In this document: positions 36,303 through 41,242 of the stretch, in pieces
How the letters are laid out: each line of letters opens with the position of its first letter
Numbering within the stretch: the first letter of the stretch is position 1
Origin: Streptomyces ossamyceticus
GTDB lineage: Bacteria; Actinomycetota; Actinomycetes; Streptomycetales; Streptomycetaceae
Assembly (NCBI RefSeq): GCF_001418475.1
Contig: NZ_LIQX01000159.1
Span: 1-54,216 of the forward strand
Reading direction: 5' to 3'
DNA: 54,216 nucleotides
Made by a program: the position numbers and the translations under genes
The notes under the pieces: generated by a model
Told to the model about the DNA's origin: nothing
What the model saw: only the letters and a program-made list of their open reading frames with translations
Database searches by the model: none

Positions 36303-36339
36303 CGTGCCGTCGCCCCCGGTCGCCGGGGGCGACGGCACG
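36303..36339. terminator. Perfect 17-bp hairpin after the arginine deiminase
   Basis: CGTGCCGTCGCCCCCGG (36303-36319), loop TCG, exact inverse complement to 36339. It isolates the deiminase from the downstream three-gene unit. A TAGGAT -10 candidate for that unit is at 36406-36411. Confidence 0.85.
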
Positions 36340-36447: not shown

Positions 36448-36756
36448 ATGGCGAGCGGTGGTCGCGACGAGGACTGGCTGGACCTGGCCGATGCCGTCGA
36501 GGTGCTGCGGACGCAGCTCGCGGAGGCGCAGCGGCGCGGGCAGGGGTCCCCGCTGCGGTTCGTGGTGGGGGAGATCACCGCGGAGTTCGAGGTCGAGCTG
36601 GTGCGGACCCGCAACGGCGGCGGGGCGCTGCGGTTCGGTGTGGTGGAGGCCGACGCCCGCGCGGAGCGCGCGACGCGGTCGGTGCAGCGGGTCACGCTGA
36701 CGCTGAAGCCGGAGCGGCACGACGGCGGTGACGTCGCCGTGGGCGACGTCGAGTAG
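36448..36756 (+). CDS. Trypco2 family protein (trypsin-co-occurring domain 2)
   Basis: The 102-residue protein has LDLADAVEVLRTQLAEAQ, PLRFVVGEITAEFEVELVR and LRFGVVEADARAER then a TLTLKPE end. This is the trypco2 layout, a helix followed by a beta-sheet, named for occurring with trypsin-like protease/NTPase genes in conflict systems (recalled from comparative genomics). It may be the protein that the neighbouring protease cleaves or is regulated by. GGAGGG precedes the ATG; the next gene follows after 24 bases. Confidence 0.85.
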   Translation: MASGGRDEDWLDLADAVEVLRTQLAEAQRRGQGSPLRFVVGEITAEFEVELVRTRNGGGALRFGVVEADARAERATRSVQRVTLTLKPERHDGGDVAVGDVE

Positions 36757-36780
36757 ACCGGGGCGCGCGGGGGCCGAACG

Positions 36781-39700
36781 GTGGAGGAGACGCAGGTCGT
36801 CCAGGTCCGCGGTGGCGCGGGCTTCGGCAGCGGCTATCTCGTCGCGCCCCGGCTGGTGCTGACCGCCGCGCATCTGGTGCCCCCGGAGGCGGACGGCGCG
36901 ATCACGGTGTCCCTGCCCGGCGGGACGGAACGGTTCCCGGTGGTGGTGCGGTGGCGGCGGGACGACGGGGAGACCGTGGACGCCGCGCTGCTGGAGATCC
37001 CCGCCGACGACGGGCGCTGGTCGCCGCCGAGCACGCTGCGCGGGGCCTTCGGTCGCCGCCCGCAGCGCTGGGGCCGGTGCGTCACCGTCGGCACGGAGAT
37101 CCCGGTCGCCGCCCTGGGCTTCCCCCGCCAGCAGCGGACCGCGGCCGGCCGCCGGGACCGGGAGGTGCTGATCGGCCGGGTACGGCCGCACGCCGGCCCG
37201 CCCCACGAGATCCTCGACGACGCCGGGCCCCTCCGGGCGGACCTGTCGGGGCTCGACGGTTCGACCGCCGCGCGCACCACGTCGTGGTCCGGGATGTCGG
37301 GCGCGGCCGTCTTCGCGGACGGCGGGGCCCTGCTGCTCGGGGTGGTGCAGTACGACCGCCGGCCCGGCCAGGGCACCCGGCTGACGTACACGCGCAGCGA
37401 GGACCTGCTGGCCTGCGACGGGTTCCGGGCGGTGGTGAGGCAGGCGGCCTCCGTCGACCCGCAGGCCGAACCCGCCGAGCTGGCCCGGCTGTTGGAACAG
37501 GCGCCGCCCAAACGGGAGATCGGCTCCCCCAGCATGCTGCTGCGGGCCGACGCCGAGGTCGTGTCGTTCCACGGCAGGGAGGACACCCTCGAACAGCTGG
37601 AGCGGTGGTGTCTGACGGACTCGGGCGGTTTCCCCGCCGTCCGTGTGATCACCGCCCCCGGCGGCCAGGGCAAGACCCGGCTGGCCCGGCGGCTGACGGC
37701 CCGTATGCGGGACCTGGGCTGGGTGGCGGGGCAGGTGGTCCACGACCCGCCCGACCTCGACGTGCTGCGCGGTGTCCGGCATCCGCTGCTGCTGGTCGTC
37801 GACTACGCCGAGACCCGGCCCGAGCTGGTCAGGCAGCTGCGGCAGCGCACCGAGCAGGCCCGGCACCCGGTGCGGCTGCTGCTGCTCGCCCGCTCCCTGG
37901 GCACCTGGCAGACCCGGGCCGCCCGCGGTCTGCGCGAGATCCGGCTGCACGCCCTCAGCCCCGCCGCACCCGACCGTGAACACGCCTTCCGTACGGCGGC
38001 CCGTGACCTGTCCCGCCGGCTGGCCGAGGCCACCGGCGACCCGGACGTCGACTGGGCCGGGCTCGCCGAGACCCTCCCGGCCCGCCGCGCCACCGCCGCC
38101 CCGGGCGCCGAGACGGCGCTGACCGTGCAGATGGCGGCCCTCGCGGCGCTGCTGCGCCGGGTCCGGCTCCCCTCGCAGGACGGGGAGAGCCTGGAGGCGG
38201 AGCTGCTGGAGCACGAGACGAAGTACTGGCACGAGAGTGCCGACCGCCGGGGTCTCGGCCGGCTCGGCGACGGGCTGCTCGCGCGGGCGGTGGCGGCGGC
38301 CGTCCTGTGCCCCGCGCTCGGCGAGGCGGAGGCGCACACGACCGTGGCGCGGCTGCTGCCCGCCGAGTCGCCGCTGCTGATCGCCGAGGTCGCCGCCTGG
38401 CTGCGCGACCTGTACCCGTCGGCCGACGACCGCTACTGGGGCCAGTTGGAGCCCGACCGGCTGGCGGAGACCCACGCCTGCGAGCAGATCCTCCTCGACC
38501 CCCGGCTGCTCGGGCTGCTGTTCGACCGGGCGCCGGACCACCAGCGGGTGCAGACCCTCACCGTGCTGGCCCGCGCGGCCGTCGCCCACGCCAACGCGGG
38601 CCGCGCGGAGGAGGCGTACACCGTCATCGACCGGCTGCGGGCGACGCTGCGCTCGGTGCCCGCCGACGCGCCGCTGACCGCGGCCGTGCTGCGCGCGCAC
38701 TCCGACACGCTGCCCGAACAGTCCCATGTGCTGCGGGAGTACGCCCTCGACGTCGCCCGCGCGCTGAGCGGGCTGTGCGGGGCCGCGGGGGACGACCCGC
38801 GGGCCCTGCGAGACCGGGCGTGGGCGCTGCACAACCTGGCGGAACGACAGTCGGCGGTCGGCGACTGGGCTCAGGCCCGGGAGGCGGCCGCCGCGGCGGC
38901 GGAGCTGCGGGAGCGGCTCGCGGCCGACGGGACGGCGACCCACCGCACGGAGTGGGCCGACTCGCTGCTGATGCTCTCCCAGGCCCTGCGGATGACGGGG
39001 AGCCCCGCGCGGGCGTACGACGTCGGCGACCGGGCGCTGGACCTGTTCCGCGCGCTCGCGGAGGAGGCGGACGAAGCGGGCGGCGAGGAGGGCGGTGAGG
39101 AGGTCGAGCGACGCGGCAGCGGACTCGTGCGGGCCCTCATCCACCAGTCCCAGGTGGTCTGGCGGCTCGACCCGAGCGCGCTCGGCTTCGACCAGGTCGC
39201 CCGGTCCGACGACCACAGCGCCGAGGCCGTCCGCCGGGCCCGGGACCTGGTGACGCGGCGGCCCGATCTCGATCCGCTGCTGCTCACCCGGGCGCTCACG
39301 GAGCGGGGCGCGAACCTGTGGCGCTTCCAGCGGCATCCGGAGGCGGTGTCGCTGAGCGAGGAGGCGGTCGAGGCGTCCCGGCGGCTGGCCGGTGAGAACC
39401 CCGACGCGTACACCGCCGACCTCGCGCGCGCCCTGATGAGCCTCGCCGTCGACCTGGACTCCGCCGGACGCCCGCACACCGAGTGCATGGCGCTGCTGCG
39501 GGAGGCCATCGCTCTGATGCGCCCCCTGGCCGAGGAGCTTCCCGCCGTCCACCGGCCCACCCTGACGCAGATGCTGCACAACCTGGCCTGGGAACACCAC
39601 CTGGCGGGCGACGACACCGCCGCGCGGGCCCGTGTCGACGAGGCGATCGAGCACCGCCGGGCGATGGCGCGGGAACCGTACGGGACGACGATGCCGGCCC

Positions 39701-40761
39701 TCGCCCAGTCGCTCGGCACCCTCGCCACGTTCCTCTCCCGCGCCGGCGCCCACGAGGAGGCGGCCGAGCGGGCGCGGGAGGCCCTGGAGGTCTACGCGCG
39801 CGCCGAACCGCTCAGCGCCAGCGACCTGAACTCGCGGTCCGGCACGGCTCTGGGGCTGGCCCGTTCCTACGACGTCCTGGGCCGCCCGGCCGACGCGCTC
39901 GACGCGCTGAACGAGGGGCTCGCCGTCCGGCGGCGGCTGAGCGAGTACGCCCCGAGCCTGTACACCGAGGGCTACGCCAACGCGCTCCACGACCTGTCGG
40001 ACCTGTACTGGCGCCATGACCGGCAGATCGCCGTACGGATCGTGCTGCGCCAGGCGCTGCCGCACTACCGGCGGCTGGCCCGGGTCGACGAGGGCGCGCG
40101 CCGGGGGCTGGCCGAGTGTCTGCACGACCTCGGCTCCAGCTACGGGACGTCCTGGGCACTGGCCGACCGGGCGGTGACCGCGCTGCGCGAGGCGTACTGG
40201 CTGCGGGGGGAGCTGGCGGCCGCCGACCCGGCCCAGAAGGAGCAACTGGCCGCGACGTGCGCGGCGTTGTGCCGGGCCCTGCTGAAGGCGTGCGTCTTCC
40301 CCGAGGCCGCGCGGGTCGCGGAGCACGAGGTGCGGCTGCGACGCGGGTTGCTCGCCGCGGACCTGGACGGCCAGGAGTGGCCCTTCTGTTTCGCCCTGCT
40401 GCGGCTGGCCAACAGCCGGGCGCGGGCGGGCGAGGACGCGGCGGCCTGGCGGACCGCGCTGGCAGCGGAGGAGGCGTGCGCGGCGCTGCTCGCGCGCCCA
40501 GGTCAGCCGCCGGAGGACGCCGCGTGGCTGCTGCACGGGCTGGGCGAGACGCTGAGCCTGTGCGGGCGGCACGACGTACGGCGGGCCGCCCGGGCGCTGC
40601 GGCCGGCCCGGCGGGCCCTGCGCCTCTACCGGGACGTGGTGGCGGGGGACCCGAGCAAGGAGAACGCGCTCAGGTGGATCGTCGACGGGCTGGCGAAGGC
40701 CCTGGAGCGGGTCGGCCACCATGCGGAGGCCGTCGACGTGCAGATGCGAAGAGGAGTGTGA
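36781..40761 (+). CDS. Trypsin-like protease-STAND NTPase-TPR protein
   Basis: This 1326-residue multidomain protein has a trypsin-like domain at residues 1-225: His31 (TAAHLV), Asp67 (VDAALLEI), Ser173 (GMSGAAVF), all three present. Residues 262-500 are a STAND-type NTPase: FHGRED lead-in, Walker A APGGQGKT (292-299), Walker B LLLVVDYAE, then LLLARS. Residues 610-1310 are TPR-like helical pairs. There is no signal peptide, so it works in the cytosol. By analogy to other STAND proteins, the repeats would sense a trigger, NTP would drive assembly, and the protease would then cut targets. GTG start. Flanked by trypco2 and DUF4913 genes in one unit. Confidence 0.9.
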   Translation: MEETQVVQVRGGAGFGSGYLVAPRLVLTAAHLVPPEADGAITVSLPGGTERFPVVVRWRRDDGETVDAALLEIPADDGRWSPPSTLRGAFGRRPQRWGRCVTVGTEIPVAALGFPRQQRTAAGRRDREVLIGRVRPHAGPPHEILDDAGPLRADLSGLDGSTAARTTSWSGMSGAAVFADGGALLLGVVQYDRRPGQGTRLTYTRSEDLLACDGFRAVVRQAASVDPQAEPAELARLLEQAPPKREIGSPSMLLRADAEVVSFHGREDTLEQLERWCLTDSGGFPAVRVITAPGGQGKTRLARRLTARMRDLGWVAGQVVHDPPDLDVLRGVRHPLLLVVDYAETRPELVRQLRQRTEQARHPVRLLLLARSLGTWQTRAARGLREIRLHALSPAAPDREHAFRTAARDLSRRLAEATGDPDVDWAGLAETLPARRATAAPGAETALTVQMAALAALLRRVRLPSQDGESLEAELLEHETKYWHESADRRGLGRLGDGLLARAVAAAVLCPALGEAEAHTTVARLLPAESPLLIAEVAAWLRDLYPSADDRYWGQLEPDRLAETHACEQILLDPRLLGLLFDRAPDHQRVQTLTVLARAAVAHANAGRAEEAYTVIDRLRATLRSVPADAPLTAAVLRAHSDTLPEQSHVLREYALDVARALSGLCGAAGDDPRALRDRAWALHNLAERQSAVGDWAQAREAAAAAAELRERLAADGTATHRTEWADSLLMLSQALRMTGSPARAYDVGDRALDLFRALAEEADEAGGEEGGEEVERRGSGLVRALIHQSQVVWRLDPSALGFDQVARSDDHSAEAVRRARDLVTRRPDLDPLLLTRALTERGANLWRFQRHPEAVSLSEEAVEASRRLAGENPDAYTADLARALMSLAVDLDSAGRPHTECMALLREAIALMRPLAEELPAVHRPTLTQMLHNLAWEHHLAGDDTAARARVDEAIEHRRAMAREPYGTTMPALAQSLGTLATFLSRAGAHEEAAERAREALEVYARAEPLSASDLNSRSGTALGLARSYDVLGRPADALDALNEGLAVRRRLSEYAPSLYTEGYANALHDLSDLYWRHDRQIAVRIVLRQALPHYRRLARVDEGARRGLAECLHDLGSSYGTSWALADRAVTALREAYWLRGELAAADPAQKEQLAATCAALCRALLKACVFPEAARVAEHEVRLRRGLLAADLDGQEWPFCFALLRLANSRARAGEDAAAWRTALAAEEACAALLARPGQPPEDAAWLLHGLGETLSLCGRHDVRRAARALRPARRALRLYRDVVAGDPSKENALRWIVDGLAKALERVGHHAEAVDVQMRRGV

Positions 40762-40765
40762 CGCG

Positions 40766-41242
40766 ATGACATCACCGTCGGACGACACCGGGCGGACCGG
40801 GCGGGAGGAGTTCCGGGAGGAGTCCGTCGAGGACATCCGGCGGGACGAGGAGAGCGCCGCCCGGCCGGCGGAGCTGTTCTACGGCAACGTCGGCGAGTTC
40901 GTCACGGACCGCTTCGTCCACTTCGTCTCCCGCCCGGCCCCGGGCTCCGGACGGGTGTGGTGTCCCGAGTGGTACCGGCACGCCGAGGCGCTGTCCCGGC
41001 TGGACTCACTGTGGCGGGCCTGGGAGGCGCTGCGCTGGGACGCCGGACCCGGCATGTCCAACTGGTGGGTCCACCACCTCGACCCGACGGTGCGGGCCCT
41101 GCTCGACCCCGTCGCCGGCCCCTTCGGGCGGTGCGTGGACGGGCACAGCCCGCAGGAGCCGCTCCCTGTCGAGACGCCGCCGGCCGGGCTGTTCGACGAC
41201 CAGCGTCTGCCGACGTCGAGGAACCCGTTCGCCCTCGACTGA
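40766..41242 (+). CDS. DUF4913 domain protein
   Basis: The 158-residue protein has the DUF4913 core: ELFYGNVGEFVTDRFVHFVS, WCPEWYRHAEALSRLDSLWR, GMSNWWVHHLDPTVRALLDP then GPFGRC. The first 35 residues are acidic and disordered. Function of DUF4913 is unknown; it is often met in actinobacterial mobile and plasmid regions. Here it begins four bases after the protease-NTPase stop with GAGGAG before the ATG, so it is part of that system. It ends 13 bases from the convergent era gene. Confidence 0.82.
   Translation: MTSPSDDTGRTGREEFREESVEDIRRDEESAARPAELFYGNVGEFVTDRFVHFVSRPAPGSGRVWCPEWYRHAEALSRLDSLWRAWEALRWDAGPGMSNWWVHHLDPTVRALLDPVAGPFGRCVDGHSPQEPLPVETPPAGLFDDQRLPTSRNPFALD

What the first reader, a model, noticed from the sequence alone, without database searches (positions are those of the whole stretch)
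36448..41242. Compact trypco2 / protease-STAND-TPR / DUF4913 unit: candidate conflict or defence system
Three genes with gaps of 24 and 4 bases encode a trypco2 protein, a cytosolic 1326-residue protein with a complete protease triad (His31, Asp67, Ser173), a STAND NTPase (Walker A at 292-299) and long TPR array, and a DUF4913 protein. Trypco2 with trypsin-NTPases is a known comparative-genomics association (recalled). The constant pairing with DUF4913, and what the protease cuts, are to my knowledge not described. DUF4913 or trypco2 could be sensor, adaptor or substrate. The unit is walled off by a perfect terminator (36303-36339) and lies next to era, a core locus.
Basis: partly seen in the sequence, partly recalled or inferred. 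Interest (0 to 1): 0.85.

Follow-up and report, generated by a model that had tools for sequence, protein, structure and literature searches.

The report
Protease immune-receptor with conjugation-gene partner
A soil bacterium carries a three-gene unit that looks like an immune sensor fused to a protein-cutting enzyme, and its third gene, of unknown function, belongs to a family that otherwise sits with the DNA-export machinery of transferable plasmids, which suggests (but does not prove) that the unit watches for incoming plasmids rather than for viruses.

Summary
In detail: Trypco2, a 1326-aa trypsin-STAND-TPR protein ("PSN") and DUF4913, with gaps of 24 and 4 bases. DUF4913 follows PSN in 21 of 21 distinct loci of one PSN clade (one of them seen on two contigs of its genome), including Glycomyces and Amycolatopsis, and in 0 of 58 other related loci with DNA beyond the protease gene. 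In the PSN tree it is one gain, never lost. The pairing is strict but clade-bound and rare (5 of 121 Streptomyces genomes).

New lead: DUF4913 elsewhere is a conjugation gene. In 16 of 16 plasmids inspected it directly follows the coupling-protein gene; no trio locus has a coupling protein. Best reading: an Avs1-like protease-STAND receptor whose DUF4913 was recruited from conjugation machinery as bait or recognition subunit, so that coupling complexes of incoming elements trigger proteolysis. Against it: trio genomes hold further DUF4913 copies as often as others (8 of 20, 46 of 116), and no binding, substrate or phenotype is shown. Rivals: DUF4913 as protease substrate, or as scaffold unrelated to conjugation.

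The parts
36303..36339 (+). perfect 17-bp hairpin between the upstream PAD-family gene and the unit; terminator-like, without T run
36448..36756 (+). Trypco2 protein (102 aa)
   Evidence: PF19631, 84.2 bits; upstream of PSN in 19 of the 20 distinct trio loci where it can be read
36781..40761 (+). PSN: trypsin-like protease, STAND-type NTPase, TPR array (1326 aa)
   Evidence: Pfam, invariant triad and Walker residues, model of residues 1-680 with mean pLDDT 84.5
36781..37455 (+). PSN residues 1-225: trypsin-like protease domain (His31, Asp67, Ser173); boundary set by eye
   Evidence: Trypsin_2 36.2 bits; Foldseek matches to serine proteases, best 3lt3 at E 1.6e-7
37513..38640 (+). PSN residues 245-620: STAND-type NTPase with helical extension; boundary set by eye
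   Evidence: AAA_16 and nSTAND_NTPase5 matches below cut-off; Walker A GGQGKT conserved; secondary structure of the model
38641..40758 (+). PSN residues 621-1326: TPR array, the fastest-diverging part of PSN
   Evidence: TPR_12, five stretches; mean identity 0.54 among 15 trio loci against 0.60 protease and 0.61 STAND
40766..41242 (+). DUF4913 protein (158 aa), start codon 4 bases after the PSN stop
   Evidence: PF16259, 109.8 bits; follows PSN in 21 of 21 distinct trio loci

Best explanation
The unit is a STAND-protease immune receptor built on the plan of AVAST type 1: N-terminal trypsin-like effector, central NTPase switch, C-terminal TPR sensor, plus the small standing partner Trypco2. One clade of these receptors has added DUF4913 as a third subunit. 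DUF4913 otherwise belongs to conjugative type IV secretion modules, in plasmids directly behind the coupling-protein gene; I infer that it is a partner of the coupling protein. Proposed mechanism: resting PSN holds DUF4913 as bait (or uses it as recognition arm); when a conjugative plasmid or ICE makes its coupling complex, this engages the host DUF4913, the STAND domain binds nucleotide and oligomerises, and the protease cuts a partner (Trypco2, DUF4913 or a component of the element), stopping transfer or the cell. Shown by sequence: the three genes, intact catalytic and nucleotide motifs, clade-wide retention, the conjugation linkage of DUF4913 elsewhere, retention of its conserved residues. 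Inferred: DUF4913 binding to coupling protein, the trigger, oligomerisation, substrate and outcome.
For: DUF4913 directly follows the coupling-protein gene in 16 of 16 inspected plasmids (4 of the top hits, 12 picked from a list of 20 spread over the ranking; 383 records match in all). A profile of these 16 coupling proteins finds a homologue on the same strand in 11 of 12 longer chromosomal non-trio DUF4913 loci and in none of 22 trio loci, the whole window included. DUF4913 presence is one clade in the PSN tree: 20 of 58 labelled rows, 1 change against 16.8 for shuffled labels, SH-aLRT 99; the unlabelled row L071 has, in the same genome, DUF4913 behind a PSN C-terminus on another contig (L168). 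By eye no other third gene is conserved in relatives. Of 27 alignment columns conserved in at least 13 of 16 plasmid proteins, 24 hold the same residue in at least 15 of 17 trio proteins, among them W65, C66, W69, H72, R78, W83, E87, S98, W100, H104, G118, F120, C123, H127. Trypco2-PSN without DUF4913 is the commoner form (32 STAND-bearing loci outside the clade), so DUF4913 is what is special to the clade: most simply its specificity. A STAND-fused protease acting on a partner protein is the tested mechanism in Avs1 (PMC12799240, outline, abstract and passages seen).
Against: Genomes with the trio are not poorer in other DUF4913 copies: 8 of 20 against 46 of 116 other Streptomyces, p 1.0. Conserved residues may only reflect the fold. 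No likeness was found between the last 190 residues of 13 trio PSN and coupling proteins (best E 0.085). The partner role of DUF4913 in conjugation is itself inferred from gene order, and tight adjacency is mainly a plasmid feature: in 10 of the 11 chromosomal loci the coupling-protein gene lies 1.7-6.9 kb away, and only 2 of 26 short (3.3-kb) non-trio stretches contain it. The DUF4913 tree splits the trio copies into two groups: starred branches force 2 changes and only 2% of 200 bootstrap trees show one clade, although the AU test does not reject one (p 0.308). No interaction, activity or phenotype was measured.
Confidence: 0.42

Rival explanations
1. DUF4913 is the substrate or pro-effector of the protease: STAND activation by another (phage or plasmid) trigger releases the protease, which cuts DUF4913 (or Trypco2) and so frees an active fragment, as Avs1 and Hachiman proteases cut their pro-nuclease.
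For: Avs1 and Hachiman proteases act on a separately encoded partner of the same operon (PMC12799240). Trio DUF4913 has an acidic N-terminal extension of about 40 residues with a recognisable DIRRDEE-type stretch in 13 of 17 aligned copies, whose divergence follows TPR and STAND (rank correlations 0.90 and 0.89) more than its own core (0.71).
Against: DUF4913 shows no known catalytic domain and its model (pLDDT 70) no solved-fold match; plasmid copies keep the same core and also have variable N-terminal extensions. The correlations are not corrected for shared descent.
Confidence: 0.22
2. DUF4913 was recruited as scaffold or stabiliser of a large NTPase; in plasmids it serves the coupling-protein ATPase, here the STAND NTPase, and conjugation has nothing to do with the trigger. 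The unit then senses phage or stress through the TPR array.
For: In plasmids and in the trio a small DUF4913 gene follows the 3' end of a large NTPase gene, mostly within a few bases or overlapping. PSN units without DUF4913 exist. Trio genomes also hold conjugation-type DUF4913 loci.
Against: No shared docking element was found: the last 190 residues of 13 trio PSN do not resemble coupling proteins (other parts were not compared).
Confidence: 0.25
3. The unit is not a defence system but regulates development or proteolysis of a housekeeping partner in these filamentous bacteria.
For: Related conflict-system types are concentrated in multicellular bacteria (PMC7159879, passages); in the window the unit sits among metabolic and core genes.
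Against: Patchy distribution (5 of 121 Streptomyces genomes, 1 of 394 in the class sample), different chromosomal sites and a plasmid-borne Trypco2-PSN relative beside transposase and recombinase genes fit a conflict system better.
Confidence: 0.11

Closest known systems
AVAST type 1 (Avs1), trypsin-STAND receptor with MBL pro-nuclease (Tuck et al. 2025, PMC12799240)
   Same: N-terminal trypsin-like protease fused to a STAND-type NTPase; partner gene upstream; PSN residues 6-97 match the Avs1b profile weakly (19.9 bits; 16.2 bits over residues 6-75)
   Different: Far below the Avs1b cut-off of 1500 bits; no MBL-fold protein among the three proteins or the seven window neighbours scanned; partners are Trypco2 and DUF4913
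Trypco2-trypsin conflict systems (Kaur et al. 2020, PMC7159879)
   Same: Trypco2 gene beside a trypsin-like peptidase
   Different: The passages seen place Trypco2 with VMAP-MoxR-vWA ternary systems; here protease, STAND and TPR are one protein and none of seven window neighbours scanned is MoxR or vWA; 'DUF49' does not occur in that text
DUF4913 proteins of actinobacterial conjugative plasmids and ICE-like loci
   Same: Same Pfam family; 24 of 27 columns conserved in plasmid copies are kept in the trio
   Different: No coupling-protein match in any trio locus; linked to PSN instead

Membership tests
AVAST type 1 (Avs1) | trypsin-like protease N-terminal to a STAND NTPase | tested here: met
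   the NTPase call rests on motifs and sub-threshold Pfam matches
AVAST type 1 (Avs1) | match to the curated Avs1b model | tested here: not met
   19.9 bits against a cut-off of 1500
AVAST type 1 (Avs1) | upstream MBL-fold pro-nuclease gene | tested here: not met
   upstream gene is Trypco2, the next one a PAD-family gene; no MBL family among seven neighbours scanned
AVAST type 1 (Avs1) | recognition of a phage protein and defence | not testable with these tools
   needs experiments
VMAP ternary system with Trypco2 (Kaur et al. 2020) | Trypco2 next to a trypsin-like peptidase | tested here: met
VMAP ternary system with Trypco2 (Kaur et al. 2020) | adjacent MoxR and vWA genes | tested here: not met
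   four genes upstream (LeuA, M4 peptidase, GH1, PAD; smaller ORFs between them not scanned) and three downstream (Era-like, ammonium transporter, P-II) match other families
DUF4913 (PF16259) | score above the curated cut-off | tested here: met
   109.8 bits against 25
Conjugative T4SS module | coupling-protein gene at the locus | tested here: not met
   no coupling-protein profile match at E up to 1e-10 in 22 trio loci

The most novel reading that the evidence does not exclude
A bacterial STAND-protease receptor that guards against conjugation: it carries a captured copy of a coupling-protein partner as built-in bait, so that the DNA-export machinery of plasmids and ICEs, rather than a phage protein, is the trigger. 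This would be a bacterial counterpart of the integrated-decoy principle of plant NLR receptors (recalled).
Probability: 0.28. Interest if true: 0.87.

Novelty: new variant of a known kind. Interest (0 to 1): 0.63.

Why it matters
The STAND receptors with a known trigger recognise phage proteins such as terminase and portal (recalled). A member tied by descent to a conjugation component would make 'do bacterial NLR-like proteins sense plasmids?' directly testable with three genes and a mating assay. It also gives DUF4913, named in no paper of the held library, a first functional context: a gene tied to the coupling protein of actinobacterial conjugative plasmids, at least one of which carries resistance genes (the Prescottella plasmid).

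Tried and rejected
Phage link of DUF4913: no match in 50,697 phage records at E up to 0.01. Association at genome level: not enriched. Exclusion of other DUF4913 loci by the trio: none seen (8 of 20 against 46 of 116; two of the 20 are not Streptomyces). Fold of DUF4913: no PDB sequence match of note (best E 0.047) and no Foldseek match at E up to 10, with a model of pLDDT 70. Trypco2: no convincing PDB match (best E 0.0083, a designed knot protein). Mimicry of coupling protein by the PSN C-terminus: nothing. Trio on plasmids: PSN relatives occur on 36 plasmid records, none at 60% identity or more; the two inspected are Trypco2-PSN pairs without DUF4913. Paper searches that gave nothing to the point. 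A paper on conjugative elements of actinobacteria (PMC3218068, passages) searched for coupling proteins and VirB4-type genes but says nothing of DUF4913 in the passages seen.

Limits. Gene calls in fetched loci come from my own codon-bias script, which missed genes (for example DUF4913 of L036, found by profile). The genome scan used two short peptide patterns, so divergent trio loci may be missed. Of its 63 loci outside the clade, 23 lack a STAND profile match and 5 (L084, L085, L100, L103, L111) end at or inside the protease gene; the 58 others have at least 316 bases beyond it. The protein searches of whole genomes scored at most 20 or 6 first-look candidates per genome, so PSN counts are lower bounds. 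The PSN tree used L059-L114, eight loci and the window; L075, L078, L083, L084, L086 were dropped as identical to other rows and L103 for lack of STAND; four rows labelled 'noDUF' (L040, L085, L100, L111) cannot be read downstream; support is SH-aLRT only. The DUF4913 tree left out L001 (the window's copy), short and identical sequences, and five long-branch plasmid rows; four trio rows were mislabelled 'chrom', put right. The 12 longer chromosomal DUF4913 loci were taken mostly from the top of the score list, not at random. L071's DUF4913 lies on another contig; that both pieces are one PSN gene is inferred. The two structure jobs went to DUF4913 and PSN 1-680; no complex prediction was available.
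Full report
What is there. The window lies in a Streptomyces-type genome (contig C76 of G000; nearest named loci S. torulosus, S. neyagawaensis and Streptomyces sp. MA5143a at 95-96% best-segment identity). Three same-strand genes with gaps of 24 and 4 bases encode Trypco2 (102 aa), PSN (1326 aa: trypsin-like protease, STAND-type NTPase, TPR array) and DUF4913 (158 aa). H31, D67, S173 and the Walker A residues G295, G297 and K298 are invariant in an alignment of 27 sequences, 14 of them from outside the DUF4913 clade. The model of residues 1-680 is good (pLDDT 84.5); its protease part matches solved serine proteases. The NTPase call rests on motifs and sub-threshold Pfam matches. Upstream lie a PAD-family gene, a GH1 gene, an M4 peptidase and leuA; downstream an Era-like GTPase on the other strand, an ammonium transporter and P-II.

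How constant is the trio? In 121 Streptomyces genomes DUF4913 occurs in 51, PSN-type N-termini in 60 and Trypco2 in 78. DUF4913 stands next to PSN in five (G000, G040, G057, G098, G081), with 0.06 pairs within 5 kb expected by random placement. A scan of 84,980 species' genomes with the trio PSN alignment gave 80 loci. The first 17 rows (L059-L075) belong to the trio: 16 show DUF4913 directly behind PSN; the contig of L071 ends inside PSN, but in the same genome DUF4913 lies behind a PSN C-terminus (residues 926-1325, 53% identity) on another contig (L168). None of the other 63 loci holds DUF4913; 58 of them have DNA beyond the protease gene, and 40 of the 63 bear a STAND match (leaving out L071). 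L075 and L038 are the same sequence in the compared part, so with window, L035, L036 and L037 there are 21 distinct trio loci, all with DUF4913. Trypco2 lies upstream in 19 of the 20 where this can be read; L065 (S. niveus) lacks it. In a sample of 394 genomes of the class only the window's own genome has the pair, by comparing the coordinates.

One gain, kept. In the PSN tree (59 rows, 645 columns) the rows with DUF4913 form one clade with SH-aLRT 99; one change explains the label, against 16.8 for shuffled labels. The clade spans Streptomyces, Glycomyces and Amycolatopsis. No gene outside the trio is shared by all sites: one group sits downstream of the PAD/GH1 genes or before era/amt (window, L059, L060, L061, L064, L072), another before metG (L037, L038/L075, L074) (the first 25 clusters printed; names). 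Thus the three genes are the unit.

What DUF4913 is elsewhere. tblastn finds the family in 383 of 72,556 plasmid records; the ten genera printed are actinobacterial. It finds none in 50,697 phage records. I inspected 16 plasmids: four of the top-ranked hits and 12 picked from a list of 20 drawn evenly over the ranking. In 16 of 16 the gene directly upstream on the same strand is annotated 'type IV secretory system conjugative DNA transfer family protein', 'TraM recognition domain-containing protein' or 'putative TraG-family protein'; most overlap or lie within a few bases, the widest gap being 176 bases (L144). A profile built from these 16 proteins finds a homologue on the same strand in 11 of 12 longer chromosomal non-trio DUF4913 loci (L039, L044-L051, L053, L054; not L052), adjacent only in L054 and otherwise 1.7-6.9 kb away; only 2 of 26 short (3.3-kb) non-trio stretches contain it. 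It finds none in 22 trio loci, the whole window included. DUF4913 is therefore a companion of conjugation machinery with a second life in the trio. No paper of the held library names it.

Is the trio copy still the same protein? Of 27 columns conserved in at least 13 of 16 plasmid proteins, 24 hold the same residue in at least 15 of 17 trio proteins; conversely, of 45 trio-conserved positions, 41 have the same commonest residue in plasmids, though weakly at some. The DUF4913 tree (57 rows) puts the trio copies in two groups: starred branches force two changes and 2% of 200 bootstrap trees show one clade, but the AU test does not reject one clade (1.96 log units, p 0.308). So one capture from the conjugation family, or a capture and a later replacement by a related copy, are both open.

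Evolutionary rates. Mean pairwise identity over 15 trio loci: Trypco2 0.78, DUF4913 core 0.64, STAND 0.61, protease 0.60, TPR 0.54, DUF4913 N-terminus 0.52. Within PSN the TPR array diverges fastest, as expected of a sensor; Trypco2 is the constant part. The DUF4913 N-terminus changes in step with TPR and STAND more than with its own core, a hint of contact that is not corrected for shared descent.

Mechanism. The closest tested system is Avs1: a trypsin-like protease on a STAND receptor which, once the receptor has sensed infection and oligomerised, cuts open a separately encoded MBL pro-nuclease (PMC12799240; outline, abstract and passages seen). Our unit has the receptor plan without the pro-nuclease. 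Since Trypco2-PSN without DUF4913 is the commoner form in the scan (32 STAND-bearing loci outside the clade, 28 with DNA beyond PSN), Trypco2 is probably the general partner or substrate and DUF4913 the clade's special input. Given where DUF4913 is otherwise found, the input is most simply the coupling complex of conjugative elements. Kaur et al. already list decoy interactions among likely ways of such systems (PMC7159879, passage). Shown: anatomy, motifs, retention, conjugation linkage. Inferred: every molecular contact, the trigger, the cut protein and the outcome.

Evidence against. Trio carriers hold additional DUF4913 copies as often as other Streptomyces (8 of 20 against 46 of 116). Of eight additional copies in the genomes, three have a coupling-protein match within the fetched 3 kb (L170, L171, L172), and G000 has one on contig C603 (L054). 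So elements of this type live with the trio, as they may beside a sensor that they evade or that acts on entry only. The search for likeness between PSN C-termini and coupling proteins failed. No structure match explains DUF4913.

Verdict. A real three-gene variant of protease-STAND conflict systems, undescribed within the held library, rare but strictly kept, with a conjugation-type third subunit. The anti-conjugation reading is the best single mechanism but remains below even odds; one mating assay would test it.

Noticed in passing
L055-L058, L139-L150 (plasmid loci): DUF4913 is a fixed neighbour of the type IV coupling-protein gene in actinobacterial plasmids (16 of 16 inspected), in several in the order SCO6880 family - ATP/GTP-binding protein - coupling protein - DUF4913: an unstudied candidate partner of the coupling protein.
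   Followed up: partly
L097 and L098, downstream of PSN: Two related protease-STAND loci (Nonomuraea wenchangensis, Streptomyces chryseus) without a Trypco2 match carry instead a small, by eye membrane-anchored protein right behind PSN (gaps 15 and -4).
   Followed up: no
L039 (G067:C1:3039000-3057000): An ICE-like locus with coupling-protein homologue and DUF4913 that also holds, about 4.4 kb on, Trypco2 and a distant protease-STAND gene: an element may carry such a system itself.
   Followed up: partly
G000:C603 (L054): The window's own genome holds a second DUF4913 copy directly behind a coupling-protein homologue on a 7.6-kb contig, an ICE- or plasmid-like fragment.
   Followed up: partly
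L151 (NZ_CP108158.1, plasmid of Streptomyces sp. NBC_00161): A plasmid-borne Trypco2-PSN pair lies between a Tn3-family transposase and recombinase genes, which suggests movement as cargo.
   Followed up: no
G000:C73:27321-27554 and G000:C274:4139-4363: Two further Trypco2 genes in the same genome; their neighbours were not examined.
   Followed up: no
L115-L118, L120-L124, L126, L128, L129, L132, L135, L138: Related proteases without a match to the STAND profile and without Trypco2 in the locus, many from species that I recall as verticillate Streptomyces; a different architecture sharing the protease domain. In L127, L133, L136 and L137 a Trypco2 gene follows about 3 kb downstream instead.
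   Followed up: no
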